Below are positions 18,537-60,786 of a stretch of DNA of 64,000 bases, one piece after another. The stretch comes from Letharia columbiana (Eukaryota; Ascomycota; Lecanoromycetes; Lecanorales; Parmeliaceae), in assembly GCF_014066305.1 (NCBI RefSeq), contig NW_023501082.1, positions 62,001-126,000 of the forward strand, read 5' to 3'. The position numbers were made by a program, and so were the translations under genes. Each line of letters starts with the position of its first letter. Positions within the stretch are counted from its first letter, which is position 1. The notes under the pieces were generated by a model that had not been told where the DNA came from, ran no database searches, and saw only the letters and a program-made list of their open reading frames with translations.

Positions 18537-19204
18537 GTATTCTTTTGAAAAAGGAGGTGTAAGAACTCTGCTACATAGCCATTAGGACGAATATTGGAGT
18601 TACTTATTATGACACTACCACGCACCTGATAGTTCTAAGTCCTTTGAACATTTCCTGAGCCATCGAGAACAGGAGCACAAGACCAGTGAAAGTCCCAAGT
18701 TAACTGTGACTCGTTGCCAGCCATTCGCTAAATCCCAACAGGCAAGGAAGAAACAAACATTTGCGCTCAATGTCATTTTGTTCTATCTGTAGCTGAGTGT
18801 GAATTTCTATACAAGAATTAGCATTGATAGCTGGCTGATTGCCTCTTCTATATATTTATTGGTCCTAGGCCTCTAGTGGAGGCACCCACCAACCGGGGGC
18901 TGTTTTAGCACCCTTGGTGGACAGAACTAATTCCGGCACTGGCAAGTAAGTCGCCAGACTGTTGGGAGTGACGGGTATGAGTAGATGGAGAAACCTTCAC
19001 CCACTTTTTGACATAATCTTGTTTTTTAGTGGCTTTTCCATGAGACTTGCAGCCAACAACACAGCAAATTCACATCATCACAGTGTATTTAATTAACGTC
19101 AATTCTCCACAAGTCAACCCGCTTCATTTCCACATCGATTCGCTTCTTCACAAGATCTCAATTCTCGTACGTCTAGATCTAGGTCACAGCTTCCAACAGA
19201 ACGC
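18537..19204. other. Intergenic, paralogues D to E
   Basis: 668 nt. No gene seen. A short imperfect hairpin (GGCCTCTAGTGGAGGC) occurs near 18869-18884. Otherwise it is unremarkable promoter and 3'-end DNA. Confidence 0.4.
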
Positions 19205-20615: not shown

Positions 20616-21118
20616 AAACATAATCGACTGCAGAGAGGGTGCCGGACAGACCTAGAGGACGCTGCGGGAAGGAAAATCCGTGTATGATGGGAAGAGATGC
20701 ATCGAAGCAAAGGGCTAGGGTGGCGAGCGATAGATTCTGCGGAAAATCAGCCACATGGTTGGACGACCGGGGGAATACAGGCTTAGACTACGAACAGGAC
20801 ATTATCTTGATCAGAAACATCACACTGCTCACGTTGTTCTTCTCTAGCCCAAAACGGTTACTCCAACGGACTTTACCTGTTTCAAGAGTGGACGCCCTCC
20901 CCAAGATTCCTCTTTCTTTTCTGTTCTGTGCTCCGAGCCTTCGACTCCCAGATTGATTCCCATAAGCTGTACGCATCTTCCCTCACTCCTCTCATCGATT
21001 CCAGCCACTCTTTTTCGCGAAAAGCTCCGCTAGCACAACTTCATTTGTGTTCTTCAACCGCACAGTTCCCACACGACACAGAACTTCCTTGCACCCGTCT
21101 GCTTCCCGCGAAGGCCAA
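20616..21118. other. Intergenic, paralogues E to F
   Basis: 503 nt without a supportable gene. It has pyrimidine-rich patches near 20830-20930 and 20975-21040, as expected for a fungal promoter and leader. Confidence 0.4.
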
Positions 21119-23785: not shown

Positions 23786-26071
23786 TAAATATAATATTAT
23801 CGCTAAATTATTACGCTTTTTAGTAAAAATAATATATTCTTATAAGAGATATTATTATTTATAAACACTTTTAAAATAATAAGTCTTATTAATAAATTTA
23901 AAATAATATAAAGATTTTCTTTAATATTACGCGTAATTAGTATTTTAAATATTTAAATAATTCTAATATATATAAATATTATTATTATTATAATCTCGAT
24001 TATAAAAATATTAAAAAGCTTTATTAAAAATATTTAAAGTTTAGATATAAAAAATAAAGTTAATCTTAAAGCTCGAGATAATAATTATTTTATAAAAATT
24101 AAAATTATAATATAAGAATAACTTAATTTTAAAGTAAATTTAAAGATATTAAGCGATATAATTAAAAATAAATAGATTTAATATTATATTATAAATATAT
24201 TATATATTATAAAAGCTAATATAATCGAAATTTAATTAAATATAGATTAAAATTTATATATATAAAATTAAAGAAATATTCTAATTTTAAAAATTAATAC
24301 TTCGTTTAATTTTTTAATAAATATTATTTTAATTAGAATCTATAAAATAAATTATAAATTATTTAAAAATTAGATAAGAGATATTATTAGAATTATATAT
24401 AATATATTAAGAAATTCTTTAAAAATAATAGCGAAAATTTCGATATTATATATAGATTATAATTAAATTTAATTTTAAATTTAATTTTATATTCTATACT
24501 ATATTTATTAATAATAATAAAAAATATCTAAAAGATTTATTAAGATAATATTTTTAAATTTATTATAGTATTATAAGTATAATAAGCTCGTTAAAGAAAA
24601 TTAATTTATTTATTTTAAAAGAGAATAGAGATTTAGAGTATAATATTAAGATTTAAAATTATATTATTAGAAGTTAAAAAAAAAAAAGATTTATAATATA
24701 TAAAAATTATATTAATTTACTTAATTTAATCTTAATTAAAAATTATTAATAATCTTCTAAATAGAATCTATAAAAATTCTTATATTAAGATAATTAAATT
24801 ATAAAGTATTATATTATAAATAATTGGAGTTTATCTTAAAGATTTTTATAGCGTTAATAGTTTCTAAAGGCTTTAACTATAATAGATAATAACGATTAAA
24901 TAATAAATTATTAATAGAGAATAATAGAATTCTGTGGGGGCGCTTTCTTTATGTTGGTTATAGACTTTTCTACTATTCGCGAATACTCTAACTATATGGA
25001 TACGCCTTCTTTCTAGAATTCTATTATTTTTTTATTATATCTTTATTTAATCGTTATTATCTATTTGTCTAAGCCTTTAGTTTTTTTTACGCTTTTATAA
25101 TCTTTAATATTTTTTTTTATTATCTATATATATACTTGTATTTATTATCTTAATATAGAACTTTTATAGATTCTTTTAGAGATTATTAATAATTTTTATT
25201 AGATTAATTAGCGATTAATTAATTTCTATATATTATAATCTCTTTTTTTTAACTTTTTAATAATATAACTTTAAGTCTTATATTATACTCTAAATCTTTT
25301 TTCTTTTAGAATAATAATAATTTTCTTTATAAGCTTATTATACTTATAATACTATAATAATTTAGAATTTTTTTATAAATCTTTTAGTATTTTTTATTAT
25401 TATTAATAGTTATATAAAATATAAATTAGATTTAAATTATTTATTTAGCTTATTAATATCATTTTTCTTTTTTTTGGATTTTTTAATATATTATATATAA
25501 TTCTAATAGTTCTCTTTCTATTTTTAAATAATTTTAATTTTTTTTAATTCTAATTAAATAATATTTATCGAAAAATTAAACGAGTATTAATTTTTAAAAT
25601 TAAAATATTTCTTTAATTTTTATATATAAATTTTAGTTTTTTTAATTAAATTTCGATTATATTATTCTTATAATATATAATATATTTATAATATAATATT
25701 AAATCTTTTTCTTTTAATTATTCGCTTAATATCTTTAAATCTATTTTAAAATTATTTTCTTTATTATAGCTTTATTTTTATAATATTATTTCTCGAGCTT
25801 TTAAATTAATTTTATTTTTTATATTTAAATTTTAAATATCTTTAATAAAGCTCTTTATATTCTTTTAATTAAATTATAATAATAATAATAATATTTTATA
25901 TATTAGATTATTTAAATATTTAAAATATTATTCGCGTATATTAAGATCTTTTATTATTTTAATTTTTATAAAACTTATTATTTTAAAAGGTTTATAAATA
26001 ATAATATCTTTTATAAAGTATACTATTTTTCTAGAGTTATAATTTAGCGTAATATTTATTTAATAATAAGG
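23786..26071. repeat. RIP-saturated AT-rich island forming a 1.1-kb-arm inverted repeat
   Basis: Nearly all A/T, with the dinucleotides CA and TG almost absent, as expected when RIP has converted CpA to TpA on both strands. The right half, read backwards on the other strand, matches the left half over its whole length. The outer edges share the block GCTAAATTAT next to TATTATTTATAAAC. Mid-arm both have CTTATTATACTTATAATACT, and the inner edges end in AGAATTCT (24926-24933 and 25015-25022). Left arm about 23786-24933, right arm about 25015-26071, with many differences between arms. No coding capacity is left. It is probably a dead inverted duplication or transposon pair. Confidence 0.85.
24934..25014. 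other. 81-nt loop with normal base composition inside the RIP palindrome
   Basis: Between the two AT-only arms lies a single-copy segment with clear G/C content (GTGGGGGCGC near its start; ATGTTGGTT; GGATACGCC) and several TpG dinucleotides. It has a small internal echo, CGCTTTCTTTATG against CGCCTTCTTTCTA. Being unduplicated, it would not itself be a RIP target. Confidence 0.8.
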
Positions 26072-35858: not shown

Positions 35859-37137
35859 AGAAGTGGAAATTCCAAAGTCATTGGTAGCATGGTGGTTTCG
35901 CATGTTTTCCTTGTGTAGCAGGCGTTGGAGAAAATGGAGGATGCGAAGATGAAGATGGCACGCGGAAATGACATCGGAGTGTTCAAGGGCGACTTCGGCC
36001 GCTGCCCACGGTGTTCATGGATGCTGCATAATGTTTTTCTTTAGACCGTGTGCGACTGGTTGCATTTATTTGACTCACGCACTAGATTTAGATGGAGGAT
36101 AGATGATGGGAAAACAAGTAGAATGTTCCAATCCGATCTCGAAAAAGGGGCCCATCTGTCGTGATACTTTGCCCTATCAAACGTTCGATTCTAGCATGGT
36201 CTACTATGCAGGACTCGGTCTTAGAGTGGGATATCCGTGGTCCATCGAACGAAGATGTCCGCCGCAAGCAGAACACAGAAGATTTCACGATGGAGCCATT
36301 CATAAATGCACCATGGCTTAACTGATGAGAACGTACCAGAGCTTTTATTTCTGGCCTGCCTCATTGACAAGTACATCTAATCTACTCATCCACTAGTCCA
36401 GCAATCTGTTGATGTTTCGTCTCTACCGTACTTACACTCCTGGGGGCAACGATGCCGAGACTGCCAAGATCACACCGAGGTCGGCCGAGAGTTGCCAAGC
36501 GTCGGAGATCGGAAACAGGAAGGTGCAGAATGAATGGATGATGCAAGGTTTCGCCTATTTCAGGTGTCAAGGGCTCATCGAATGTATCCCTGTAATCAAG
36601 GGCGAATGAAAAGGCTTGACTGGGATTGTTACCCCACCAGTGGCTTGACTGGTGCTGATGGGGCTGCTTGAAATCAAATTGTTTTATCCATTATCATTTA
36701 TTGATTGATTTATCTTTCTTTTTCATTGACTCCCCACGTGTCTTTCATTATTTCCTCTCTCGTGTCATCATCATTAAATATAATTGTATCTATAACGACC
36801 TTATATATTCCCTGCATTAACGTTGCCTGATTGTCGTTATGAACACCTTTTTTCTTCCTTCCCCTCAGCGATTGGTCCCTTAATGTTTACTTTAAGCTCT
36901 TGCGACACGTCCTCCTCAAGACCCTTTCACCTATCCACCACACTCGTTACCACTTGTGGCACTTGAGACCATCCGGGGTCAATTGCAAGTCGTCTGTAGA
37001 TGACATCTTCGACTTGATGAAGCATTCACTAGACTACGTACAAGCCATAACCACCAAGCGACCACGTCATTCAAGAGCCGAGCTGCCCTGACAGAACACA
37101 AAACCGAGGATCCAGCGTGTTCTCCTTATAAGCTAGG
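35859..37137. other. Intergenic, EF-3 to glycosyltransferase
   Basis: 1279 nt with no gene I can support. An AT-rich patch runs through about 36665-36800. The sequence is otherwise plain. Confidence 0.4.
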
Positions 37138-38625
37138 ATGCTGCTTGGCGGTCGCACCGTAGTCATCGTGTTCCTCCTCTGCAGCTCCCTCGTCCTCTTA
37201 CGCCTCCGCCATCACTCTGATTCTCCACATGTACATGTGAAAGCCGGCGGCCAGACGAACCAAGGAGGATGTTCGGGAAGGCTCGCACGGCTGAATGACC
37301 TGGGCATCAAATTCCCTGTCAAATATGCTAGCCGCGACATAATCATAAAAGCTAATTCAGACCTCAACCGGACTTCTCTCACCCAGATTGATGCTCCCTT
37401 ACTGTCAGACGTACAGATGCTTGACCCCGTCAAAAATCCTGATGGGGAATTGGAACAATGCTCCCCTTCGCTGACATTGGAGGTACCCGCTTTCCCAGGG
37501 CAACCTGCTAATGCTTCTCATATCATATTCGGCATTTCGACATACATCAAGCGCATGGACGATTCAATACCACACCTTCAAAGATCGCTAGCTTACACCA
37601 ATGCCCGGCTTATCATCTTGGCCGTAGATTTTGGCGAGGTGACGCCAAGCCGCAAAGAAATGGCAGTGCTGGAAACTCGCATGCATGGCCTTGGTATAGA
37701 CGCTACGGTCCTTGGAGCACCAAAGGATAGCTCGATGCAAACTCGATACTTCTCTCTGGCCAAAATCCTGTACGAACGAAGAGATTCTAAAACTCAATGG
37801 ATCTCCCTTTTGGATGATGATACCTTTCTACCTTCAATGCACTCATTAGTCGACACACTTGGCACCTACGACTCGTCAAAGGAATGGTATCTCGGTGCCA
37901 TGTCGGAGGATTGGTGGTCCGTCATGGTCTACGGCATGATGTCTTTTGGTGGAGGGGGCACGTTTCTATCAATCCCACTAGCGGCTCAGATCAACGCCAA
38001 TTATGACACCTGCTTACAAGAATCAACCGCGAACCAGGGAGATATCAGGGTTTTCCAGTGTATTACGGCACATACCACAACAAAACTTCAGCCTCTAACC
38101 GGACTCCACCAAACCGATCTGGGTGGTGATCTCTCCGGTTTCTATGAAAGCGGCCGCTTGCCGCTCTCTCTACACCACTGGAAGACGGGATGGCATTTCG
38201 AGCAAAAGCCTGAACAGAGAGCGCTGAATACGTACCCCATGGCAAAGATGCATCTTGTGTCCGACGTCTGCGGTGACTGCTTCCTGCAACGATGGCAGTT
38301 TGGCTCCGACACGATTCTGAGCAATGGATTCTCGATCTCGACATACCCAAATCAGAACTTCCTGGCTGATCTTGTGAAGAACAAAGACATGGACAAGATA
38401 GAGGATACATTCATGCCGACCCGGGAGGTCAATTCATTCATGCAGGGCTATGAGCATTCTATTGGCCCGCTGAGGCCCAGAGTCGAGGGGAAGATCCAGT
38501 ACAAGTTATTAGATGCCAAGGCGGAGGATGGAGGTGTCAGGCAATACTACATCTACAAAGCTTTGGATGAGGAGCCGGATATCCTATATGAGATTTTCTG
38601 GACCAGGAACGAGACTCATGTCTGA
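37138..38625 (+). CDS. Fungal glycosyltransferase, GT31/Fringe-like, type II membrane
   Basis: Intronless, 495 residues. A short cytosolic start and one signal anchor (VVIVFLLCSSLVLLRL, residues about 8-24) indicate a type II Golgi protein with a luminal catalytic domain. Fringe-like features are the nucleotide-sugar and metal motif SLLDDDTFLP with DDD at 226-228, SEDWWSVMVYGMMSFGGGG about 35 residues later, and DLGGDLSGFYESG with LSLHHWKTGW further on. Cysteines in the C-terminal part (VSDVCGDCFLQRWQFG) probably form disulfides. The acceptor and sugar cannot be told from sequence; many fungi carry uncharacterised members. Length and motif order fit a complete gene. Confidence 0.82.
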   Translation: MLLGGRTVVIVFLLCSSLVLLRLRHHSDSPHVHVKAGGQTNQGGCSGRLARLNDLGIKFPVKYASRDIIIKANSDLNRTSLTQIDAPLLSDVQMLDPVKNPDGELEQCSPSLTLEVPAFPGQPANASHIIFGISTYIKRMDDSIPHLQRSLAYTNARLIILAVDFGEVTPSRKEMAVLETRMHGLGIDATVLGAPKDSSMQTRYFSLAKILYERRDSKTQWISLLDDDTFLPSMHSLVDTLGTYDSSKEWYLGAMSEDWWSVMVYGMMSFGGGGTFLSIPLAAQINANYDTCLQESTANQGDIRVFQCITAHTTTKLQPLTGLHQTDLGGDLSGFYESGRLPLSLHHWKTGWHFEQKPEQRALNTYPMAKMHLVSDVCGDCFLQRWQFGSDTILSNGFSISTYPNQNFLADLVKNKDMDKIEDTFMPTREVNSFMQGYEHSIGPLRPRVEGKIQYKLLDAKAEDGGVRQYYIYKALDEEPDILYEIFWTRNETHV

Positions 38626-39567
38626 GCAACATCTGTCGTCTCAGAGCAAGTCATGTACATCATGCCGTGGAATCAAGCCTTTGCCAAGTCGGGAGGAAAA
38701 CCAGGAGCGCCGGTCCTTGTTCCTTGCCGCCAAGTCTTGAGGGATTTGCGAATAAGAGAGAACCCGACCAGACTTCCGCATTGTGACAGTTCGCCACGTC
38801 TTGTCTTTGAATTTGTCTTCTTTGACGCCATGGATTCAGATACCTTGAGAGCAGCATTGCTGGCCGCCTCATCCCAAGGTTACCTCAAGTCGGGGTAGCA
38901 ATGAGTGCGATGTAACGACCGATACACGAGAGCGCAAAGGATATTTAGAAACGAATTTTGGAGGTTTTGGGAATTTTGGGAATTTTGGGAGTTCAGGGCC
39001 AATTCTGTTCGGATAAATAATTTTATTGTGTGTATAAAAGCTTTCATAGAAGGTGGCCGCAAGCTGGTAAGCCGGCGGACTATGTATGAAGTATGACTCA
39101 AATGAAAGGCAGGAAACAGAGACCATTCTCACGGTTACCGTGCCCTCTCAGCCTGCGGACAGCGGGGACAGAGTCTTCAAAAGCATGCCAAGAATGAACT
39201 GCCAAGCTCACCAAGGGTGGCAGTGACTCTTTCGCAACAGACCAGGCTTTCAGCGAGGCCTCCAAATCTCCAAGGCTCCAATAATCAGCCTGCGTAAAAT
39301 CTCGACTCCGCCTTCTCCGCTCACTGCCCGGTCAACGGATAAGAGCCGCTCAGCGGCAGCGAGCCTCGCTCAACGTCACCGTGGCGCTAGCGTCAGCCCT
39401 ATCAACAGCTGCGCCTGCTTTGCTAAGCGATGACTCTAATCTCTCCAGCCTTCCTTATCCTTCTACAAAACTCACATCATATCTGTCTGAAAAACATTCG
39501 TCTCCTTCTACAACCTCAGAAAAACAAGTAAACCAAATTCCGAAGCAATCGGACATCCTACTCAACC
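38626..39567. other. Intergenic with a short 9-bp tandem repeat
   Basis: 942 nt between the glycosyltransferase and the next gene. A small tandem repeat (GGGAATTTT repeated about three times) lies at 38965-38991. A pyrimidine-rich leader-like segment occurs at about 39430-39510. No gene is supported. Confidence 0.5.
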
Positions 39568-40344
39568 ATGGGAGATCCGTACCGCCAAAATTCCGCCTAC
39601 GACTACCCCACCACCACTACAACCCACGCCCCTTACAATCCCACCCAATACGCTCCTCCAGCAGCAGACCAGTATGCCGGCGCCCTAACGACTCGTCACG
39701 GCTCTACAGCCAGCAGCTACTATCCCTCCCAATCGAACATGCAACTTTCGCAATCCTCCAACCGCCCTCCTGACTCCGACTACCTGGACCCAAACCGCCC
39801 TCGCAGCGGCCACAGGCACGGGCACAAATCCCGCGACCATTCGCGCCATGGTAGAGACGCCGACCGTGACGACGATGGCCACCGTGGCCATGGGAGGGAT
39901 AGGAGTCGCTCCAAGAGCCGCGGTGCGGAATGGGGCGCCACTCTCGCCGGCGCGGCCGCCGGAGGTTTGCTGGGGCGCAAAGCGGGACACGGTGGCAACC
40001 TAGGCACGGTCGGTGGGATCATCGCCGGCGCCGTCGGCGCGCACGAACTGGAGCGCGGATACGAGAAACGGAAGGAGAAGAAACGGCTGGAAGACCCATA
40101 CGCGGAGGAGAGGCCCTCGAACCACAGGCGCAGATCTAGCGGCGGATTGATCGGCGGGATGAAGGATAAGGTCGAGGGATTGCTGAATCCGGACTCGGGG
40201 AAGGAAAAGAGGCGGTCGAAGAGTCATGTCTCTTCGAGCCGGAGGAGCAGGGGCTATGATGACTACAGCGACGATGAGTACGATGATCGGTATGATGGCA
40301 AGAATTCCGGGGGCGGAAGGAGTAGACGGGATGATTATTACTGA
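39568..40344 (+). CDS. Glycine-zipper, basic low-complexity protein
   Basis: 258 residues, intronless, no assigned function. It has a Tyr/Pro/Thr-rich N-terminus (about 1-65) and a His/Arg/Asp-rich stretch (HRHGHKSRDHSRHG) ending in RSRSKSRG at about 115. Next is a glycine-zipper segment (GATLAGAAAGGLLGRKAG; GTVGGIIAGAVGAHELERGY, about 122-165) that could insert in or lie on a membrane. A charged C-terminus rich in RRS and DDYSDDEYDD follows. Similar RS-plus-glycine-zipper proteins are common in filamentous fungi and are often stress- or membrane-associated. That assignment is weak and rests on composition. Confidence 0.7.
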   Translation: MGDPYRQNSAYDYPTTTTTHAPYNPTQYAPPAADQYAGALTTRHGSTASSYYPSQSNMQLSQSSNRPPDSDYLDPNRPRSGHRHGHKSRDHSRHGRDADRDDDGHRGHGRDRSRSKSRGAEWGATLAGAAAGGLLGRKAGHGGNLGTVGGIIAGAVGAHELERGYEKRKEKKRLEDPYAEERPSNHRRRSSGGLIGGMKDKVEGLLNPDSGKEKRRSKSHVSSSRRSRGYDDYSDDEYDDRYDGKNSGGGRSRRDDYY

Positions 40345-41092: not shown

Positions 41093-42753
41093 TTATACAG
41101 TATCCAGGAAATGAAGGTATTTCAAAGCTGGTCGAGGTCCGAATCCCATGTCCCCTCCACACCAACAGCACCGGCAGCATGAAAGAACCCAATGCAGAAG
41201 AAAGCGGCCATGCCAAACAACCCATCCAACACCGACTGCCTTCTGCCATGGGGTGACAGAAACCGGAACTGCGAGTCCGAAGGTCAAACGGTAGGCTCCC
41301 ATCATCGCACTCGTCTCGAGAGCGTGCTGCCGGAAGCATTCGATCACTTGGTTGACTGCCACAGGCACTAATAATATCGCTGGGAAGGTGATGACGATAA
41401 CGCCTAAGGCGAGGACCATGTAGTGATTATGATATTGGAGCGCAACGCCGAAAACCCCCAAGCCAATTGGGCAACAGCATGAGCGAAGGCAGCCACAGAG
41501 TATGCAACCTATATTCCGGCCTCCACGTCCCCCCCCATATCTTCCAGATAGCCAAACAGGAAGCCAGTCATTGAGATAATGCCCGTATACTTGGGCGAGT
41601 ATAATACCGCACCAGAGACTGAAGGTAAATTCGGCATTCTGCTGTGGTGGGAACCCATATCCACCCTTTTTGTCGGGCTCTTGGAGGAAGACGGTGAGGG
41701 GTGTATTGATCATGACATCTCACCCGAACGGGAGTAAATGGAAGGTACCGGCCAGAATGGTGACCGGAGATAAACGAATCGCAAAAGGGGCGGTCGCGGA
41801 GTGAGACTAGTGTGGTGGGTTGGTGCATTCTGCAGAGAGCTTCGATGTCGATGGTATCTCATAACTTCAGCGCGACTCATAGCCGGCACAGCTTTGGTCC
41901 CGATGAAGAATGTGGCAATCCTGTTTGCTATCAAGGTTTTTGGTGTCGCGGTGGAAACCCTTCTCCTCTAGAAAGAATGATACAAGTACCAAGGCTATAC
42001 CCTGGAGCCCGCGTCCACCAAAACTCGACCGGCAGTCCACATGCCCTACAATGAAACCGCCGAACGTAGAACCCGTGATAGTGCCCAACAGCAAACTCAG
42101 CGAAAAGATGAGGAAGACCTTGCCTCGCTCATGCAAAAAGAACTGGTCGGCGAAAGTACTTGCGCCTAGTATGGATGGTACAGTAAATAACAGAGCCAAA
42201 CATACCCGCGAAAAGTCGAGATGCGATGAAAGGGTTGTATTCATTCGAGTCGGTCATAGAGGCCGCCCAGATGTTGCATGCCACCGCTCCAAAAAGACTC
42301 CACCAAGTGGTCGAGCATCTACCGATGATTTTCGTGAAAGGTACAGAAAAAAACTGTCAAAGGCGAGACCAGCCACCGCTGCAGATATCTTGACAGAATC
42401 TGGTCAGTGGTCCGTGGCAAACAACAATCCGTTCAAGAAGATGAAGAATATTGAGTAGGACATCTCGACCGGAGTTTTGGCATAGAGTTTGCCTTGAACT
42501 TCAACAGCCAGCTAGTTAACTAGCGAACTTGGAGTCGTGGCGAAGGCGGCGGGACGTACCTTAGTGTTGCCAAAATGGTATACTTCTTGCGCTGTGGTCA
42601 ATTCTATTCCACTGTCCGCGATCAGTACTTGCGATAGCTAGACCGATTGGGCTGGAGAGGCTGTACCAATGCGTCAAGGTGATCACTTGTGGGGCGCGGG
42701 ACAAGCAGAATATTTTGCCTGCCCATCTTTTTGCCTTCAGGCATGAGCTGCAT
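41093..42753 (-). pseudogene. Decayed MFS transporter
   Basis: Pieces of a major-facilitator transporter of the fungal multidrug/HOL1-type group, in order on the minus strand. They are a cytosolic start with NILLVPRPTSD and RKKYTILATL; a segment near 42240-42000 with PSILGASTFADQFFLHERGK and GSTFGGFIVGHVD; a loop EPDKKGGYGFPPQQNAEF; a helix with LWCGIILAQVYGHYLNDW; and hydrophobic helices to the end. Breaks include an in-frame TGA at 42598-42600, at the place of a Trp expected before PQRKKY, and several frame changes between 42450 and 41700. An efflux pump would suit a RiPP cluster, and the decay matches its neighbours. Confidence 0.75.
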
Positions 42754-44071
42754 CCATTATGGTGATGTAGGACTTCTGCTTCTCCACCGAGTCATTCACT
42801 CTAGCATTTCCGTGGCCGCTTCTCATCTTCGGACGTGCTTTCGATCGTATATCAGGCTCATCTTCACTTTCGGCGGCAGCCGTGATGATGGGAAGTTCAG
42901 GGGAACACCATTTTGAGGCAAGAACTGAAAACGTGTATGTACATCCGTTCGCTGGACCTGGTTCTAGGGCCGCAATCCATTGCCAAGCTTCGGTCCTTTG
43001 TATACAAACCCTCGACTCAAATGCCCTTAAAATCCTCCTTGGTCGGAACCATAGATGTCCATGCGCATTAGTGTCGTGCACCCCGACCGAATCAGGGTTT
43101 GCTCACGGCTCGCGGCTCATTCCTCGAAGATGATCTTGGAACTTGGTCGCAGACTCACCCCCCCCCCGTATGTACCCTCCTCCATCGAGCGAACAGTTTG
43201 GTCCGCACTTCTTGAATGGTCGAGAGAACGGAGATGGGCCCGGGAAGAAGGGTGAGATGGCGGGAGGCTGTAATGCATGCGTGGGATTTTTGGGGGGTGC
43301 CATCAGATAGGTGTACCCATGGTCGGTCGTGGTTACCTACCTTTCTCGTTCGGGTTTTGGATCGAGTTGCTGCACCAGGGGGAACATGGGCTTGGTGGCC
43401 CCGGCCAACCGACGCTCTGCCCGCTCACCTTTGGGTTATGGTCACGTCACGATCGGCACAGTTTTACTCTACAGCAATACGTATACGATGTTGGTAGTCT
43501 GCGTTTCGCAATGAGCATGTTCTCTTCTATCGGCATGGGCGGTCTACTCATTCCAAGCCATGTGCTTTGAATCGTCGTTTGGTATGGTCTGGACGTCTTT
43601 TGGCTGTCGGGCGGTGCATTCCCATGCCTTATCTGCCAATTGCCATCGGAAATTTTTGGCCTACGTCAACTGGGGCTGCGTCTCCGCCAGACATCGTCGA
43701 TCTCTGCTAACGGGAGAGAAACAAGGCTGAGGAGACTGCCCAAGCCATGAATGATGAGGCGGAGTGTGCTTTGCTGGAACACGCATGCTGGCGTGGGCAT
43801 ATATGTACAAATTACGCCAACGCAAGGCTCTACTGCCAACAAATAGAATCATCTGGTCAATATCGGGGACACCACATGAGATTCAGCATCAAGAGACGAG
43901 GTCGCGCTGAGACACATTTACAACTCATCTTCCTCTTCCTTTGACATTATCCGATGCAGGCATATGCAGTTCACCCTTTCTGCCACACTCTTCCATGCGC
44001 TGTCAGCCTTGAATTCCACATGATAGAAACCTTCCTTCATCGGTCTCCGCAAGCAGCATGACCCCAAAAGG
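42754..44071. other. 1.3 kb without a supportable gene
   Basis: Several medium open frames on both strands, none with a family motif or good splice sites. Given the broken genes on both sides it may contain further erased cluster genes. No tyrosinase or P450 motif was found. Confidence 0.4.
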
Positions 44072-44986
44072 CTACAGTATCCCTCCATCTGCACTGGCCC
44101 GATGCAGTCTCGTCCACGTAGCCAGATGATCAAAGTTTCGACATTGGTGCTGTGTGCCCCAACCATCCACACTAGCGATCTTTGCGCCATCAGGCCCATT
44201 CTGCAAGGTTTCCAACGTCTTGTCTGACGCGCACATAAGAGCTTGGCGGAGGTTGTCGAAACAGTGCTTCCATATGATCGGGTGAGTGATGATGATGCGA
44301 TGTGTGATTTGCTGCGCATGTGATTGGAGGAGGGAGCATCAGCTGTTGCAGAAGTAGCGTGGGCTGTGTAATACCCTGTTCGTAGCTCGTTCTTGATCCA
44401 ATCATTATGGACCATTCCTAACAATATCGGTGCAGATTGAGGACGACACCCCAAGCGGTGAAGTTGGTGGAACGTTACCACCGATCTTATGTGTTCTACG
44501 TCTAGTCTCTTGCCTGCATATTCCACAGGCTTGACGTGGGAATCCACAGCGACAAAGCCTCTGCCTACTAAGAGATAGTTCTTCAGCAGTCTTTGTCTTA
44601 GAGGAGTACTGAAAGCCACTTACAAGGTATGAGACGACTCCATGCCCGATCAGTCTTCGGAGAAGGCGCCTTGACAAATGTGTCGTGTGATCTGAAAGTG
44701 ATGGCAAAAGGAGCAGGACCGACTATGAAGTATAGCAAAGATCGGTCAGACCTTGGTTTAGAAATCAAGCCGAAGAAAAGTTCCTTGTCCCCTTACCAAT
44801 GCTCCAAGAACCGAGACGCTTCGGGTGATTGGATGCATGTGCTCCCACTCAGAGACCCAGAATGGCGCAAATTGCGCAGCTCAAGAAAGTCACATGTGGA
44901 AGTTTCTTGCTGCTGCAACGGTGGCGATGCGAAGGAACGAGCCTATCGTCTAGCAATTCCTCGGTGAGATCGTAGTTCGCTCTCAT
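44072..44986 (-). pseudogene. Decayed UstYa-like (DUF3328) oxidase, copy 1
   Basis: UstYa-type proteins are small membrane-anchored oxidases that help cyclise fungal RiPP cores. Readable on the minus strand are a cytosolic start (NYDLTEELLDD) and a membrane helix (LPHVTFLSCAICAILG). The stretch SPKTDRAWSRLIP continues across a good intron (GTAAGT...CTTAG) into GRGFVAV and VVTFHQLHRLG, the first HxxHC motif with Cys replaced by Arg. The C-terminal block has DNLRQALMCASDKTLETLQ and VDGWGTQHQCRNFDHLATW, both classic. Breaks: TGA at 44849-44851 right after the membrane helix, and a one-base shift at about 44265-44270 in the middle of the second HxxHC motif. The linker between the motifs is also in doubtful frame. 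The family call is strong; the inactive state is likely. Confidence 0.8.
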
Positions 44987-45479
44987 CCGCCTTTGAAAGT
45001 GCCATGGCATACAGAGAGGTGCGAAGAAACAAGGTTGCTAGGAAGGATTTTGGAGGATGCAAATTGCAGCTGCGACCGACTAATGTATAGAGTATCGATG
45101 CAGGCACATGCAATGGCTACGTCACTCGCTATCAGGGGGGTCAAGGTTTGGAAAACCACACTTTTGATGCTTTCACTCGGTTCCTTTTCAGGTTTCACGA
45201 TATCCCATGAGCTTGGCACAGAGCTGTTCCATTGTATTGGATTGCCAAAGCTAGTTACCCAACGACCAGAGACCACATAAACCCTTTCGGTCTACCGTGA
45301 TCTGAAACAAACTTCTCCGGGGACGCGATCTTGAGATTATCTGGCATATATCAACCCTACAGAACCCCGGAGGACATTTCCCCTCGACTTACGCGAGCTC
45401 AGTCTCAGGTCCAAGATCCGGGGGGCCCGTGGACGATCCTCACGGAAGCCGCCAGGATACGCCGGACCTATCGAACCAT

Positions 45480-46540
45480 TCAACATTTCGTTCTTGCGCC
45501 AAGGATGGCTGGGTCAGTCTTACCCAAGGGAGGATGCACCAACATGCCCTCCTCGAGAAGGTCAATGGCTCGCCGGGCAGCCCACTCCATGGGTCCATCC
45601 CAATCAACGCATGTATGCTCTAGGGTAAACTCCGGCTGTGGCAGTTTGACGATCTGACCCCAGTGAAACGTAATCAGGGTTGTGTCACCGCGGCACTTGA
45701 CGCTTTGTCTGAGGATTTCGATACAGTGCTCTAGTGTTTGCAGACACGGTCCTCATCAGTCCCTACTCCTGTCCAAGGCTATCAGGCAGGAAACACAGGG
45801 ACTTGTATATCTGTATGCCCTCCCATAGTTTCTTTTGCGCGCTGGCCAAATCTATGGCCGTAGTAGCCCATACGAAAGGCTTGTCTGATACATTTCTTGA
45901 TCGCAGGTAAAGTCAGACCTCGCATCCGAGAGCGACCGTTGGAAACATTGCTACCAGGCCGTGTAACTCGTGGATGGAAAACGGCCTTCTCGCCATGGTA
46001 CCCACCACCATTGCCAAGAGGAATGGAGGATCGGTTGACTGCAAGCAAGTCCTCTGCTGGGGTTCTCATATCGGTGTCTGATCATGGTCAGCAAGAATCG
46101 TATTTCAACGAACAACAGATCCTCCACGTGGCTCACGTTGCAGTAGATCATGCCATGACTTGTCAAGAACTGGACGGGAGTTGCCAACATCTGGACTAGT
46201 AAGGTTGGGGGCGGCGTTGAACACATAGTTTATTATCTTGGAGAGCCTCTTGCGCCGGGCCTGCCATTCGCTGATGTGTCATTCTTTGGTTCTTCAACGG
46301 AGTCCAGTTTAGCGTACCCTAAGTCAAAAGGCAATGAGGGTCTTCCTCCACCCTATTTTGACTGCGGACGATAGTCAAGCTCACGAGAACGTTTATAGCC
46401 AAAAACATGAGATGTAGGGCAATAATTTGAGGATGTCTTCGATATCAAGGCGTGCGATCGAGATGATTAGCTCTGCCATCGTCGAGCTCGAGGCTATTGC
46501 TCCTATCATCCAGAGGGACTTTTTGGTCTGCATGACGAGA
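45480..46540 (-). pseudogene. Decayed UstYa-like (DUF3328) oxidase, copy 2
   Basis: Second copy, same strand, about 500 nt upstream of copy 1. Pieces in order: a membrane helix (IIALHLMFLAINVLVSLTIV, about 46425-46365) and RPVLDKSWHDLLQ. A phase-correct intron (GTGAGC...GATCAG) leads to AEDLLAVNRSSIPLGNGGGY and then KAVFH. The first HxxHC motif follows, with its Cys position read as Gly. A second intron leads to KCIRQAFRMGYYGHRFGQ. The block LEHCIEILRQSVKCRGDTT carries the second HxxHC remnant. FTLEHTCVDWDGPMEWA lies near the end, and the stop is at 45480. Breaks: a stop just before the membrane helix, and about four extra bases at 45967-45982 that shift the frame inside the first motif. One junction before LEHC does not splice cleanly. 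Confidence 0.78.
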
Positions 46541-47188
46541 CAAGGGCACTTTGGAGACTCGAGTGACGGTTCTCCGGAAAGCAATGTTTGGGGCACCATC
46601 GACTGCTTTCGAAAGCTTTTGAAGTGCTCTGTCTGAACCCTTGACATCACAAAGATACGAAGACGCTCCGACCCACCGGGACTGAAGATGTCCGTCCGAG
46701 AGATGGTTGGTGCGGATGGCATTTTTGGATACAGGATGAAGATTCCAGATTCTCGGATCACATGACGGATTGCTCGACGCCGATCCAGACGAGCGCTTTG
46801 ATAAGCCTGATCACAAGGCCATTGAGACCTAGAGCATGCACATACACCCTCTCTCCAGGGGAGAGTCCAGCACAGGCCTGTGTGTGTAAGCTGAGCAGGA
46901 AAACCGATAGTCCGTCCGTGCTGGGTTTACATATGCAACATGCATATAGTTCGCATCTGCAGCTCGCAAATCTGGCGGTGCGGTGAAGCTACCACTCAAT
47001 TTCTCCTCCACGGTTCGGAAACTCAAACGTAATAAAGCTTGCATCGAGCACATGGTTTCTCATTTCACGCGCAGCGCTGTGGCCTTTGTCTGATAACTTT
47101 CCCTCCACAACCTACCGGGAGAATTCCAGCTTTGTCTGACTTACCGTCCTGCTTCTGAGCCAACAATCCTCAGCCATCCACACTAAGA
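46541..47188. other. Probable shared upstream region of UstYa copy 2 and the precursor gene
   Basis: 648 nt between divergent genes. Possible start of the UstYa copy 2 cytosolic tail. No other feature recognised. A Zn-cluster regulator site could lie here but none is evident. Confidence 0.4.
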
Positions 47189-47488
47189 ATGTACCTATCG
47201 CACCTCTTCTGCTGGTCCCTGGCCTTAGCCTCAGGTGTGACCCGGCATGCCTCTGGCGCCGGTACCTGGGAAGGAGTGATCACCAACAGTTGCCCGTGCA
47301 TGCCATCTGTTGCTGATAAGTCTTCGGGGGCCCTAGCGATCGAAAAGCGTCAAGACGCTGATGCTGCTTATGGAGTCTATGAGAAGAGGGATGCCGCGTA
47401 TGGTGTTTACGAGAAAAGACAGGACGCGGATGCTGCGTGCGGGGTGTGTGAAAAGATAGGATGCGGACGCCGCGTGGGGTGTTTATGA
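47189..47488 (+). CDS. Ustiloxin/dikaritin-type RiPP precursor, repeated YGVY core
   Basis: 99 residues, no intron. A hydrophobic N-terminal signal (about 1-24) is followed by a leader with CPCMPS and then a short repeat array whose units end in the dibasic Kex2 site KR: KR-QDADAAYGVYE-KR-DAAYGVYE-KR-QDADAACGVCE-K. Signal peptide, KR-separated repeats and a Tyr-bearing core are the known signature of UstA-like precursors, whose cores are cut out by Kex2 and cyclised through aromatic side chains by UstYa-type oxidases. Two UstYa-like genes lie within 3.2 kb. Units 1 and 2 are intact. In unit 3 both Tyr codons read Cys. A further unit continues out of frame at 47451-47495, so the array has lost its end. 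I know of no product with a YGVY core, but cannot exclude one. Confidence 0.8.
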   Translation: MYLSHLFCWSLALASGVTRHASGAGTWEGVITNSCPCMPSVADKSSGALAIEKRQDADAAYGVYEKRDAAYGVYEKRQDADAACGVCEKIGCGRRVGCL

Positions 47489-47495
47489 GAGATAG
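47451..47495 (+). pseudogene. Out-of-frame fourth core repeat of the precursor
   Basis: In the +1 frame relative to the precursor this stretch reads a KR site, a TAG at 47457-47459 where the other units start with Gln, then DADAAWGVYE-R and a stop. One lost base in the preceding Glu codon and one C-to-T change explain the loss. The core here has Trp in place of the first Tyr. Confidence 0.75.
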
Positions 47496-48301
47496 TTACG
47501 CCGGTAGCGCAGCCTGATAGTTGAGCTTCCTCGTCGCGGGATTAGGAAATGGATCAGGGGATATGAAAGGAGGCGTGGTCCAGGATACCAAATTGCCGGT
47601 TCTGTATAGTCCATATGCTTCAGTCACCACTACAGCTGCAACGTGATAGTGTTGGAAGGTGTAACGGTTGGTTTGTTATTATATGGAGGAGTACTGCTAT
47701 TTGTGGTATGTGCCAAGCATATAGGGCTGAGAGGCTAACACTTCTAACACATAGTGCACGGCATTTCCATGTCTATAGTGGGTCTTCCAACAATAGATAG
47801 CTTCCATCGCTGTCCTGGCGCTTGATACCGCGATCGTTTCTTCCATGCAGCCGGCCACGGTACGCGGTATAACAGACCTTTAGGATTCAGAGTGCCGCGT
47901 AGAAGAAGCTGGATTTGGCTGACCAGCTGATCTTCCGTGAATCGACTCAAGAGGATCGAGTGGACCCTTTAATTCTCGCTGGCAGGCCTTCCCTCTCAGG
48001 ATCTATAAGGCAAGGTTTCCTGCACAAGTTTTGGAATCGGTCCGCTTGAAGTACCCATCATCTTACAGATCTCCATACTGTAAATCTTGCCCGCCGTGAC
48101 GTCGCCTTTGAGTGCAAAACGTAAACGTCGATTAAGTCACGGTAGGAGCTATAAAATACGAGATTCCTGAGACCCCTAGAACCCTTGAGACAGGAACTGA
48201 TCATCAGATCGCAACAATGACATATAGCTGAAGGAAACTCGAGGATGTACGACGGGGCGATGAACTCATTACCATCAATCGGTGAAGGTTGCCTTCCAGC
48301 C
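47496..48301. other. Intergenic
   Basis: 806 nt between the precursor (+) and the rhodopsin-domain gene (-). No gene supported. Confidence 0.4.
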
Positions 48302-49806
48302 TCAGTGACCAGTTGGAGCCTCGAGGGGTATTCTGGAAACACTCCCAAAGCCACAATAAGACTTAAATCTTACACCACGTTTCCTCGTGGATGTGGCTGC
48401 ACGACTTTCGTTCCACCCGTACTCCTCATCTTTTCCCTTTCCATCCTTACCGCGGTCTTCGAACCTGGTGTCCATCTCCGTGACCTCCAGAATTCTGTTC
48501 GTGGGCACGATGTTTACCCGGCTACTGTTTTCGTTCGGCCAGCTGTACGCTGCTCCACGGCTCGCACTGTTGGCCGGTCGCACAATCTTCGTGGGAACGG
48601 TCTGAAGCTCGTAGGAAGACTCGTGGCGTGGACTAGAGAGCTTGCTGTGAGATTTCCTTGTCATGGAGACCCTAACTTGGATATTGTCGAACAGGGTTTT
48701 GAAGATAGGGCGAAGAGTCGGAAGGCAGGCGGCAAATATGATCACATTGATTTCGAGGCTATGGACGGGTGTCGTCGTGAGTGACGATGGTTTGAAAATT
48801 GAGGTCAAAGTGTTGGTACTCACGCGTTCCAGATCAGTAGGTCGACCGTGATCCCTATTGTGCCATCAGTGGGGTTCAGACCTCAATTGATGCTTGCGGT
48901 CATACAAGTGAAGTCGGAGTGAACGGTCAATGTTGGCAGATAGGAGGTCTTCACGGCCGCACAAATGCCAGCGCTAGATCAAAAGGATTCGGTTAGACGA
49001 ACATGTCAGGGCCGCATACGCCAGAGAGGTTTCTTACAAGAATCCCAAGCCGAGAAGCGCGCTCAGACCAGCCTTTTTTCTCTTGTTCAATTGTAGGTTC
49101 CAGATCATAGTGATCCCAAATATGGCGAGGGCAAAGTCCACAAACACAAACCAGCCTTTATGTAATGTCAGCTGAGCGGTAAAGTTTGCATGGAATCCTA
49201 GACACACATGCAAGCGCCACGTCGAGATCGTTTATCTTTTTTGGATGCGGGCACTTGCCTGCCGAAGGTATCCAAAGCGCCTTTGGTGGGGAACATTGGG
49301 CGAAGATGGAGATAATAAGTATGCAGGCAGCTATGAATGCGGAGATGGATAGGAAGTAGAGAATCCTTTTCCTCCATCTATTCGGTGCCATAAGTCGGCC
49401 CATCAGAATTGCAACCGAGATCTTGCCCGTCGCAATGGCCATGATACAAAATGTTTGCGATACCCAGTTGAACAGAGTGGTCTCCTCGAGCTGTGCAGAG
49501 CTCAAGTACATGACATGACGAGCGCCGCCTTTGGCTGCGTAAAGCGTGAAGAATACAGAATAGGTTATTGTGAGCCCCTAAACTCACGTGTCAGATGCTT
49601 CTGATCATTGTCCTCCCCTGGGCTTCTCGTACCATGGTGCAAAATATAACCCAGTCATCCCACCACAAATTTCGGGTGATCCATACCCGAGAATATACCC
49701 TGAGACCAACAACTATCAAAGAGAGCGAGCAAAAAGCCCAAGTGACTATCACCAACTCATCAGCCCGATTGTGATCTCCCTCTGGCGAAGGAGGCGGCGC
49801 TGCCAT
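48302..49806 (-). CDS. Fungal rhodopsin-domain integral membrane protein (PTH11/SAT4-like)
   Basis: Seven-helix membrane protein of the large fungal family that includes PTH11-type receptor-like proteins. Six exons in phase: 49806-49633, 49577-49208, 49155-49038, 48973-48906, 48854-48824 and 48758-48302; 405 residues. The first helix is followed by the family motif LRVYSRVWITRNLWWDDW. The third region has LFNWVSQTFCIMAIATGKIS, then ILYFLSISAFIAACILIIS and CSPPKALW. Next is FVFVDFALAIFGITMIWNLQ with KRKKAGLSALLGLGFL. The end of the core is TVDLLIWNALEINVIIFAAC with LPTLRP, the strongest family block. The cytosolic tail is hydrophilic. A 31-nt exon carries the VDLLIWNA part. No CFEM domain precedes it. 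The gene looks intact, in contrast to the broken cluster genes beside it. A role in sensing or transport is unknown. Confidence 0.87.
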
Positions 49807-51431
49807 TGTAAACGGTAAAAGCGAGCGAAGTAACGAGGTTTGCCAGATGAAGATGTGTGATCTTAGGGCAGATAGACCCCTGCTGTAATTTACGGAAATA
49901 GGACGGAGAAGGACGCGATTTATAACAGTCTCTTACGCCGAGCTAGAGCCTATTTGCAATTTTGAGAACGTCATGGAACCGGTGGTGGTCACCATGCCGT
50001 ACCTTTGCAGTGTTACTTCGGAAGTTGAGTGTCTGCAGGACGGCCAAGTCAAGTTCTTGTGGAAAACTATGTGCGTGCACACAGTGTACCCTCCAAAGCT
50101 ATCAGGTATCCACACTCGTAAAGTGGGAACAGGGATGTGGCAGTATCTGTGAAGCAGGTGCTAGAGGGTAAACAAAGTATGTACGATATCTCGGGCTGGA
50201 CAGCGTGTATTTTCTTTTGTAAAGCTGATAGTGAGCCGTACCTGCGCCTTCTGATTGGCTAATTTATTACTCTCGACGTTGAATTAGCGGATTTCAAAGG
50301 GATCTGATAAGTGTCGGCCCTTTTCGGTATGTGTACACCCCTTTGGATCGGGCTGATGTGAGCGACTGTTGGAATAAAATATGCGCGCTGAGCTCCTCGG
50401 ACATACGTAAAGGTGTGAGGCATTTTCTTCGAAGGTTGCTGTATTCTGCCATATTTCTGCAGGGGAACGGACCCGTCTCTGATGCAACCCTACAGAAAAG
50501 AAAGTAGGCTCTTACTTGAGTTTCCCGTCGAAGCCCCGTCCCAGCCCGGCCTATTACGCAGCGTAAACGGATCCGACTGCTTGGCTGCTTGACGGTGTGA
50601 TGCAATGTCGGTTAAAGTTGCTGTATTTCAAGACCATTTTGTACGAAACGGGTTCGACTGCTTTAACAGGTAATGATGTGAGAAATTATATCCGATGGAA
50701 GGGGTGTACATGTATCAAAAAGGAGGAACACATATTCGGTCCGATTTGAAGTCGCTATGGTTTGAATGAATTATGGGTGTGAGAAATCTTCTTAGATGCA
50801 GGTCAAAGCTGCTGTGATTTAAGACAATCATGCATAAAGCGGACTTGACTACTTGGACAATTGATGATGTGAGAATGCACTTGAAAGTGTTGAAGACCAT
50901 CCTGCAGAAAGCGTATCCGACTAACTCAATGAGTAATGACGTGAGAGGCTTTCTTCGCTGCAGATGGAATTTGTGAGCCAAAATCGCGCGTCCCATTAAG
51001 ACTTGACTCTCAAGGATTGATGTTGATGTTCATAGAAAAGTGAGCTCAGGTTTGAGTATAAGTATCTGCTAGCGTCATCGTCTGTTCTCCCGTGAGCTAG
51101 TATATGCTATACGGCTAGAATCACATCCCTCGATGACAAGCAGCATCCAATATGGCATGGAGAACAGTACCCTACCAACCGAAGTGTCATCATTGGCTGG
51201 AAGCATGGCGGGGCTCGTTAGTGTGCGCATGTGGAGCATGCGTCAGCCATGCATCAATAAGGTAACCCTACTTGATGAGCTGAGGATTTTCTCGCAAGCC
51301 TCACCAGATCATCACCGCCATTACCTGTCAGCTTTGGAATCTGGTGATCTAAACGATTTCTGACTCTCTTTAAACCTCAGTGTCTCAAAAAGCTTGGCTA
51401 GCCTCTCATCACATGCCAACGCTGTTCAACC
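49807..51431. other. 1.6 kb intergenic with degenerate repeats
   Basis: No gene supported. Two short frames (49962-50171 and 51133-51363) have no recognisable content. The middle holds a set of degenerate tandem copies listed separately. The last 300 nt are the methyltransferase promoter. Confidence 0.45.
50611..50966. repeat. Degenerate tandem copies of about 80-110 bp
   Basis: Three or more related units share the pattern AAGAC-AT...GCAGAAAGCG...CGACTA...TAATGATGTGAGA. They start near 50611, 50803 and 50883, with a partial copy near 50760. A looser relative lies near 50430. Copies differ at many positions and the spacing is irregular. Confidence 0.55.
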
Positions 51432-58237: not shown

Positions 58238-59637
58238 TATGAAGGAGTGATGTTATGAGAAAAGATGAGACAGGAGCAATGAGTCCATCGATTTGCTTCA
58301 GCGTTACACTGGCCGTGGCAGTTTTAGCCTGGATTCGGAAGCTCGTACCGATGGAAGTACTGCTTGTGTGCTCGGGTTGATTGGCTGAAGCGGTCCATCA
58401 GCAAGACTTAGTCATTGGGCTTCCCCAGACGAGGAGAAGCCTGGTACCCTGACCGTTGACCCCAGATGTTCATCGTAGCCCGCGCCGCTAGGCAATCAGA
58501 TGCGGCGTACATATGGGAGGGAGGGGGGGAAGGTCATGGACGTCTAGCAAGACGGATAAACAATGGCGGGGTAATTAAGTTGTCTTGTAGGAATCTCTTT
58601 TGGTCTCGCTGGACATAGGAGACGTAAGTTCGTACAGTTAGTGGAGCCTTAGCGGCAAAGATGTAGTGCCAAGACCGGCAGGCGAGAGCGGCAATCCTTC
58701 GGGAAGGAGCACCCGACTTCAGTTTCCCCACGAGAGGACATCATATCTGTACTCCGTTAAAAAGACCTCTCCATTGCAGGCTTTGCAGCTCCTCTTCTTC
58801 ATGTGTGTATCTATCTTCTTATCTATACTGCCTCATTGCCTCAATGTGAAACCTTGGTCCTTACGGTACTAACTCGCTCTACATCATAGTGCGCAACAGC
58901 AACTCCTGAGAAGATTGCCTACCTGTACCTACAGCAACAAGCTCCACCTCCTGGTGTGGTACCCACATTAAAACCCCGTGTCCAGCATCGCTTGTATATA
59001 GCCTAAGCCAACAACAATTCATGCCGGACACCTTCCCTCTGTTCCGTCGCATGAAACGTTTGCATGTGGTGGCGCAACATGCGGTCTTTGACCTCTCAAG
59101 CGCTTCAATGGCGGGGATTTTTCACGGCGTGAAGCCCACTCTATCCAATTATCTCCAATATCACTATCTTATCCCCCAGTTGCCCACGTTTCAAGCTGCA
59201 GTCGGCTTGGAACGGCGCGAGGCAGTGCCGGACGTCTATTTTCCGCGCTTGAATCCATTCGAGCCCATGAAGAAGGAGGCGTCTCCCGGGACTCCTAAAT
59301 ACCCTGCGTCTTGCAGCATGGTAGGCCAATCAATTCGACTTGCTACGTCACTCCCCTGGCGCTTGTGTGGGAGATTGGGATACCTGATAGACACCCTTCA
59401 GTCTCAGTGCCTTGAGATACTCTCGCTCTCTCTCCTAGTCATTCGCATGTAGCTTGTCGCTTGCTGTTCTGTTGTTTCATTCTGTCCTTCGAAAACTCGA
59501 TTGAATTGATATCTACAATCCTCAGCTCAAGTGCAAAGACTATGATATAAGTCGCATGACCTGCTCCCACGGTTCGTACTCTATCCTTCCTTACCAACTG
59601 GGTTCAACTTTGCTGCTCCAAAGGCATCTTGATAGCT
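58238..59637. other. 1.4 kb without a supportable gene
   Basis: A 143-codon frame at 59021-59452 (+) shows no motif and no splice support. Upstream region of the repeat-containing secreted protein lies at the right end. Confidence 0.4.
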
Positions 59638-60786
59638 ATGGCTAACCTCCTATCCTACAGCCTTGTTGCCGTGCTCGTAGCTGTCTCATTGGCCGCCCCT
59701 AATCCTGCCGTTAACAGAATCGATGCTCCCCCCCAGAGACCACATTCTACCACCATTATCGGTTCAAAAACAACCCTCAGCTCATCGACAGCGCCACACA
59801 TCACCCTCAAGCCAAGAAAACCCGCCGTCAACAGGATCGATGCCGTTGGTGTCAATGTACACGGTAAACCCACCAGCAGCTCAGCCCACAGCAGTAGCTT
59901 TCGGACTCTCGTCAGCACAACGGTGGGACCACACATCGCTCTGAATCCCAGGGACCCCGCAGTCAACAGGATCGATGCACCTGGCCACAAGCCTCATTCC
60001 AGCACCCGGACTAGCTCAGCAACAGCCGCTAGCTCATCGAATAGACCTCACGCTCCTATTGAAGAACGAGCCCCAGCTGTCAACAGAATCGATGCGGTTG
60101 GCAATGGTGTGGTCGACCAGGCCTTGGTCAGCGTAGTCGGTGGAACCCCTGTCACTCTAGCTATAACCGATGTCCAACAGCTAGAGGTAGCAGCGTAAGA
60201 CATTTTCCTACTTTTTCATTTTATTACGGCTGACAAAGACTTGCGAAGTACCGAGATCATAGGCGCCGCAGCAGCTCCCATGCCCGTCATCAGTGTCAAC
60301 CCGTTGCCAAATAATACGGCTGTCCCTGCATCCTTCTTTGCAGGCCCTACACCTAGCAGTAGCGCTATACCTTTCGAAGTCCCAGACACCGAAACCGTCA
60401 TCTACATCACAGTTCACCCCGACCGCCCCATCGCCAAGCTTGATATGGGCCAAGTCCTACTTCACGCCATGTCCGAGTTACGCGAAACCATTAACGAAAA
60501 TGGGGAGGATGGCTGGTTGCCCGAAGACGACTGGTCATGGTTTGCGGAGACGTGGGATTGCTTACTAACTGCGGATCGGAATTTGATCCCCGGACCGGGT
60601 GGCCGTGCGCAGCATTTGACGTACGGAGTTTTGCACAACGCGTTGGTGGGACTGTGGGGCGCGATGTATTCTCATGGAAGGTACTTTGCGTGCGACTTTG
60701 AAATTGAAGATGCACAGTGGGGCATTGTGGGAAGTGGGAGCATGAATTCTTGGGACAAATCGGAGGGGAGTCTCACTACCTCCTAG
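59638..60786 (+). CDS. Secreted protein with four PAVNRIDA repeats
   Basis: Not recognised. Model: 59638-60194 joined to 60249-60786 (54-nt intron GTAAGA...CGAAG with branch CTGAC), 364 residues; an ATG three codons upstream is an alternative start. Signal peptide MANLLSYSLVAVLVAVSLAA. The first PAVNRIDA follows it almost directly, then three more, each after a spacer of about 35-50 Ser/Thr/His-rich residues. The local contexts alternate: APPQRPHS, AVGVNVHG, APGHKPHS, AVGNGVVD, so repeats 1 and 3 match and 2 and 4 match. Single basic residues (KPRK, NPRD, EERA) precede repeats 2 to 4; no KR sites. The C-terminal part has a folded-looking region with ETVIYITVHPDRP, LPEDDWSWFAETWDCLL and LVGLWGAMYSHGRYF. 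Likely extracellular; function unknown. Confidence 0.76.

What the first reader, a model, noticed from the sequence alone, without database searches (positions are those of the whole stretch)
41093..47495. Decaying fungal RiPP (dikaritin-type) gene cluster with a possibly new YGVY core
A KR-punctuated secreted precursor, two UstYa/DUF3328 genes and an MFS pump lie within 6.4 kb. UstYa-type proteins next to a Kex2-cut repeat precursor define this class (ustiloxin, phomopsin, asperipin). The YGVY core does not match the core sequences I know. Both oxidases and the transporter are broken, while the precursor is only partly damaged. That is an unusual snapshot of a pathway being lost, and relatives of this strain may carry a working version.
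Basis: partly seen in the sequence, partly recalled or inferred. Interest (0 to 1): 0.93.

Follow-up and report, generated by a model that had tools for sequence, protein, structure and literature searches.

The report
Broken fungal cyclic-peptide gene cluster
A fungus carries the wreck of a small gene cluster that probably once made a short secreted ring peptide (core YGVY), and some unbroken-looking pieces of related genes turn up in other sequenced samples; it is a new member of a known class rather than a new kind of system.

Summary
The window (fungal genome, 52.2 Mb, 161 contigs) has a KEX2-punctuated repeat precursor at 47189-47485(+), two UstYa/DUF3328 genes on the minus strand (about 46440-45480 and 44910-44070) and an MFS transporter (42720-41191, minus). 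All four are damaged. The first HxxHC copper motif is lost in both UstYa copies (HELHG with a frame break; HQLHR), whereas 19 of 20 other UstYa places in this genome keep it. The transporter changes frame inside stretches continuous in paralogues. Core units run YGVY, YGVY, CGVC, then an out-of-frame WGVY. RIP indices are ordinary and neighbouring genes are open, so this is indel/substitution decay. Of five precursor relatives, P0001 and P0004 also carry out-of-frame tails; P0002, P0003 and P0005 show only in-frame DADAAYGVY units, P0005 with a leader. Seven UstYa fragments are 66-75% identical; the one that covers the first motif has HELHC. Gene neighbourhood in relatives could not be tested. 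Word searches found no paper with the repeat strings, but supplements could not be read. Verdict: a degenerate dikaritin-type cluster, a new member of a known kind; real, moderately interesting.

The parts
47189..47485 (+). KEX2-type repeat precursor ORF (99 aa), degenerate; leader-like N-terminus weak
   Evidence: one match in the genome; relatives P0001-P0005
47351..47389 (+). repeat 1, QDADAAYGVY-EKR, core YGVY
47390..47419 (+). repeat 2, DAAYGVY-EKR (short unit), core YGVY
47420..47455 (+). repeat 3, QDADAACGVC-EK, Cys at both core Tyr places
   Evidence: the same CGVC unit in P0001
47460..47495 (+). repeat 4 with stop, DADAAWGVYER, out of frame with repeats 1-3
45480..46440 (-). UstYa/DUF3328 copy A, pseudogene. 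Pieces: possible membrane segment about 46440-46320 and exon piece about 46229-46120 (both by eye); by homology 46069-45974, HELHG 45972-45958, 45871-45797, C-terminal exon 45737-45489
   Evidence: PF11807; tblastn with P0006-P0012
44070..44910 (-). UstYa/DUF3328 copy B, pseudogene: piece 44729-44619, HQLHR 44469-44455, piece 44269-44075, not in one frame; the upper end is by eye
   Evidence: PF11807; paralogue ORFs from L048, L049, L050; motif scan
41191..42720 (-). MFS transporter pseudogene, frame changes and an in-frame stop
   Evidence: paralogue alignment; weak Pfam MFS_1
47650..47749 (.). about 100-bp degenerate copy of a short dispersed repeat (TGTTGGAA...TTCTAACA), about 160 bp behind the precursor ORF; not part of the pathway
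   Evidence: 10 other places listed, 78-87% identity

Best explanation
This is the remnant of a dikaritin-type (ustiloxin-like) RiPP cluster: precursor, two DUF3328 oxidases and an MFS exporter. When intact it most likely worked as follows. The precursor entered the secretory pathway; a KEX2-type protease cut after each EKR to free units such as QDADAAYGVYEKR; the two membrane-bound copper oxidases modified the core, most plausibly cross-linking it through one or both tyrosines of YGVY; trimming and MFS export followed. In this genome the pathway is predicted dead: both oxidases lack the Cys of their first copper motif and are not in one frame, the exporter is frame-broken, and two of four core units are spoiled or out of frame. 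Shown here: the genes, their damage, and relatives in sequence. Inferred: processing, cross-link chemistry, export, and loss of function.
For: UstYa profile matches at two adjacent minus-strand places. Seven UstYa relatives of copy A, E 3.7e-33 to 1.6e-23 over a 90-residue region, 66-75% identity (7 of 7 candidates). KEX2-delimited DADAAYGVY units in P0002, P0003 and P0005. P0007 reads on as one frame where the window changes frame at HELHC: residues 1-32 match 46069-45974, residues 32-101 match 45972-45766 in another frame. First HxxHC motif read in 19 of 20 UstYa places outside the window and in 0 of 2 here, Fisher p 0.013. Alanine mutants of the conserved His and Cys of HxxHC(x)nHxxHC lost activity in the DUF3328 enzyme CctR (PMC12435403, passages). 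Transporter pieces lie in three frames across stretches that are one ORF in a paralogue. Longest stop-to-stop frame centred in 40-48 kb is 233 aa, against 310-1000 aa in the other seven 8-kb bins. RIP indices ordinary.
Against: No relative's contig could be fetched, so precursor and UstYa are not shown to be neighbours anywhere else. The precursor's leader is weak. Some frame changes could be introns; copy B has no close relative here to settle this, all three protein searches being used, and 7 of 10 pieces scanned apart gave no UstYa or MFS match. No tyrosinase lies on this contig: the 3 matches of PF00264 in the genome are on C38 and C62; ustiloxin and phomopsin need one (PMC7329392, passages), asperipin-2a does not (recalled). 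I did not search for P450 genes. P0001-P0012 bear no organism names. The motif tally compares only two copies.
Confidence: 0.88

Rival explanations
1. The precursor is a linear KEX2-processed peptide (pheromone- or effector-like), and the UstYa pseudogenes beside it are unrelated.
For: 6120 of 7878 KEX2 repeat proteins in a kingdom-wide survey had no DUF3328 gene within 15 genes (PMC7329392, passages). A cross-linked product has not been shown.
Against: Two UstYa genes lie within about 3.1 kb of the precursor; in the same survey pheromone-type precursors had DUF3328 neighbours in only three cases. Tyr is kept at both core places in the units of P0002, P0003 and P0005.
Confidence: 0.08
2. The breaks are sequencing or assembly errors and the cluster is intact.
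For: Frame changes are indels, which some assemblies create; no reads were available.
Against: Other 8-kb bins hold open frames of 310-1000 aa. Both UstYa copies also differ at the motif Cys by substitution. P0001 shares the CGVC unit and has its own out-of-frame tail.
Confidence: 0.03
3. The precursor is still under selection as a diverged peptide (for example a CGVC peptide) while the oxidases were lost.
For: Two YGVY units and their EKR sites are intact; P0001 keeps the CGVC unit.
Against: P0001 has lost a core Tyr in unit 1 (GAHGVY) and its frame after CGVC; the window has lost frame after CGVC too.
Confidence: 0.04

Closest known systems
Dikaritins / ust-RiPS (ustiloxin, phomopsin, asperipin-2a)
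   Same: KEX2-cut repeat precursor with Tyr in the core beside DUF3328 genes; a transporter nearby
   Different: Core YGVY, not YAIG/YVIG or YVIP (PMC7329392, passages) nor FYYTGY (asperipin-2a, recalled); no tyrosinase on the contig; genes broken
UstYa/DUF3328 family (PF11807; CctR is the characterised copper enzyme)
   Same: Profile match over the C-terminal part of both copies; in copy A the residues of the second motif can be read on either side of an inferred intron (H-T and E-H-C)
   Different: The first HxxHC motif has no Cys in either copy, and copy A changes frame at it
Other KEX2-repeat plus UstYa loci of the same genome (C17, C32, C33, C4, C70)
   Same: Same architecture; units of C17 (DSDAIYDHA) and C70 (DADEAWGGG) resemble DADAAYGVY by eye before the core
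   Different: Other cores; the UstYa places beside them keep the first HxxHC motif

Membership tests
dikaritin (ustiloxin-type RiPP) cluster | precursor with repeated cores delimited by dibasic KEX2 sites | tested here: met
dikaritin (ustiloxin-type RiPP) cluster | signal peptide on the precursor | tested here: inconclusive
   hydropathy only: 2.07, against 2.30 in P0005
dikaritin (ustiloxin-type RiPP) cluster | Tyr in the core | tested here: met
   YGVY in 2 of 4 units here; YGVY units in P0002-P0005
dikaritin (ustiloxin-type RiPP) cluster | DUF3328 genes close to the precursor | tested here: met
   two, within about 3.1 kb
dikaritin (ustiloxin-type RiPP) cluster | same gene neighbourhood in relatives | not testable with these tools
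   contigs of P0001-P0012 cannot be fetched
dikaritin (ustiloxin-type RiPP) cluster | cross-linked product | not testable with these tools
   needs mass spectrometry
ustiloxin/phomopsin subtype | tyrosinase gene in the cluster | tested here: not met
   3 PF00264 matches in the genome, none on C47
functional UstYa/DUF3328 enzyme | HxxHC(x)nHxxHC copper motif in one gene | tested here: not met
   HELHG with a frame change; HQLHR: degenerate members, not working ones
functional MFS transporter | continuous coding frame | tested here: not met
   pieces in three frames and a stop

The most novel reading that the evidence does not exclude
A dikaritin family absent from the texts that I could search, built on (Q/M)DADAAYGVYEKR units, exists in several fungi and makes a small peptide cross-linked through the two tyrosines of a near-symmetric Y-G-V-Y core; it is being lost repeatedly (here, in P0001 and in P0004), while this genome keeps other clusters of the same architecture.
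Probability: 0.35. Interest if true: 0.5.

Novelty: new member of a known kind. Interest (0 to 1): 0.42.

Why it matters
It adds a core sequence (YGVY) and a family of precursor units to a peptide class of which few products are known. It gives a case in which loss can be read gene by gene: oxidases and exporter broken, half of the core units still readable, related sequences at a similar stage, and in-frame pieces elsewhere. The genome's other KEX2-repeat/UstYa loci make it a natural system for asking which clusters a lineage keeps.

Tried and rejected
RIP as the cause: indices over 41-48 kb are like those of most of the window. The second motif of copy A as a frame break: I first read it so, then relatives suggested an intron between H-T and E-H-C, so it is not counted; the donor of that intron does not look canonical in the window, but this is inferred from proteins only. 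Second motif of copy B: inconclusive. Read without a split, the second motif is seen in 15 of 20 UstYa places outside the window and 0 of 2 inside; I do not use this. A second precursor copy: only one match by protein, and by pattern only the two units of this gene matched without mismatch. Rfam in 36-56 kb: none at gathering score. Solved structure related by sequence to P0007: none at E 0.1. NCBIfam: weak MFS matches far under their cut-offs and one chance match to the precursor. Pfam on P0001-P0005: none. Literature: 'YGVY' (word start) with 'RiPP', 0 papers; four longer repeat strings anywhere, 0 papers; 'YGVY' anywhere in four papers, 0; ustiloxin with pseudogene, RiPP and fungal, 2 papers, passages of one read. 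Supplements could not be read, so the core may be listed there.

In the repeat scan I dropped as artefacts an Arg-rich ORF in L014, an antisense ORF in L017 and one in L024. The 35 matches were merged by me into 22 places (2 in the window), and the tally was read by eye; the exception outside is C65:187357. One search tested unit frames with a wrong pattern for L015 and L024; one search repeated these.

Full report
Where it is. The window is G000:C47:62001-126000 of an unnamed fungal assembly of 52.2 Mb in 161 contigs. The region 41.1-47.5 kb lies between a 496-aa open frame with Fringe/DUF604 matches (37135-38622) and an ORF without Pfam match (39535-40341) on one side, and a fungal rhodopsin-domain gene (49161-49932, minus) on the other.

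The precursor. An ORF at 47189-47485(+) begins MYLSHLFCWSLALASG and goes on to EKR-delimited units: QDADAAYGVY, DAAYGVY, QDADAACGVC. After the third the frame is lost; a fourth unit, DADAAWGVYER, is readable in another frame. Chance does not explain it: 3 matches of the degenerate pattern in the window, 0 in 100 shuffles; the peptide test finds only words of this ORF, and nothing in 20 shuffles. One match by protein in the genome. The N-terminus is hydrophobic but weaker than in other precursors.

Relatives of the precursor. The first search gave 4 proteins at E up to 10 among 39 candidates; the second, set for longer proteins, gave 2 among 1041, one of them new. P0001 matches 47 of 50 residues and shares the CGVC unit, but has lost a core tyrosine in unit 1 and runs into a tail that matches another frame of the window: a sibling whose copy also looks broken. 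P0004 (E 4.1, not significant alone, 75 aa) also has a tail that matches another frame of the repeats. P0002 has three QDADAAYGVYEK units and P0003 two, neither with an obvious leader; P0005 has a hydrophobic leader and three MDAD(T/A)AYGVYE units. So of five relatives two look frame-broken, and one looks like a leader-bearing precursor. None bears a name, and their contigs cannot be fetched here.

The oxidases. PF11807 matches two places on the minus strand. For copy A, relatives P0006-P0012 (7 of 7 candidates, 66-75% identity) give an exon map by tblastn: 46069-45974, 45871-45797 and 45737-45489. P0007 is the only one of the seven that covers the first motif; it reads HELHC in a continuous frame, whereas the window changes frame there (45974/45972) and reads HELHG. 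The second motif seems split by an intron. For copy B, paralogue ORFs place pieces at 44729-44619 and 44269-44075 in different frames, and its first motif reads HQLHR. Of 20 UstYa places outside the window, 19 keep HxxHC at the first motif; here 0 of 2 do (p 0.013). In the DUF3328 enzyme CctR the motif binds two copper ions, and alanine mutants of its His and Cys lost activity (PMC12435403, passages). Both copies are therefore predicted dead.

The transporter. Three paralogue regions, compared ORF by ORF, align from 42720 to 41191 (minus) in three frames, with frame changes inside a stretch that is one ORF in a paralogue, and one stop inside another aligned stretch.

Nature of the decay. RIP indices are ordinary. 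The longest stop-to-stop frame centred in 40-48 kb is 233 aa, against 310-1000 aa in the other seven bins. The lesions are small indels and substitutions. A copy of a dispersed 100-bp repeat lies behind the precursor; I see no evidence that it caused the loss.

How it would have worked. By the known logic of the class (secreted repeat precursor cut by KEX2, DUF3328 proteins needed for cyclisation: PMC7329392, passages), EKR-delimited units would be released in the Golgi, oxidised by the two UstYa enzymes and exported. A link through tyrosine side chains is my inference. No tyrosinase lies on this contig, which speaks against the ustiloxin/phomopsin subtype.

Novelty. No paper held has 'YGVY' as a word start together with 'RiPP', nor the strings YGVYEKR, DAAYGVY, AAYGVYE or QDADAAYG anywhere. 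Supplementary tables of the KEX2-repeat surveys (PMC7329392, PMC6339444; passages seen) were out of reach. The architecture is common. Of 16 UstYa regions fetched from this genome, 5 also hold KEX2-delimited repeat ORFs with other cores, 4 of the 5 with a signal-like start nearby; in 4 of the 5 all units found lie in one frame, in L015 they fall into two.

Noticed in passing
L010 (G000:C17:60001-69000), L015 (C32), L017 (C33), L021 (C4), L024 (C70): Five other KEX2-delimited repeat ORFs beside UstYa genes, with units QDSDAVYDHDHGERLDSDAIYDHA, SDPAKDYIYPFKTYPEEE, ENPDGDLYEYKA (8 DLYEY units), ADDEPGAPSIWSVE and ADADEAWGGGTE. In L015 two units lie in one frame and two in another, so that one may be broken or spliced.
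   Followed up: partly
G000:C62:42204-53243: A tyrosinase match (42.2-42.8 kb) lies about 5 kb from a UstYa gene (47.1-47.7 kb), with a second UstYa at 52.9-53.2 kb: possibly an ustiloxin/phomopsin-like cluster. No precursor was recognised in L014.
   Followed up: no
window 59560-60198 (+): Secreted-looking ORF (MANLLSYSLVAVLVAVSLAAPN...) with four spaced copies of PAVNRIDA; no Pfam match at 0.01.
   Followed up: no
window 24001-26000: A 2-kb island of 11-12% GC in a 49% GC window.
   Followed up: no
window 11280-22422: A run of at least five similar ORFs (by eye: TN(R/K)Q-(V/I/A)-x-x-E motifs and a shared C-terminal part), apparently a tandem family.
   Followed up: no
window 47650-47749; L032-L038, L040-L042: A dispersed repeat of about 100 bp beginning TGTTGGAATTCAGCATCTCAGCCC; ten other places listed at 78-87% identity; on C88 two copies lie in opposite orientation 5 kb apart.
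   Followed up: partly
G000:C65:187357-187581: The only UstYa place outside the window where the first HxxHC motif was not seen in the scan.
   Followed up: no
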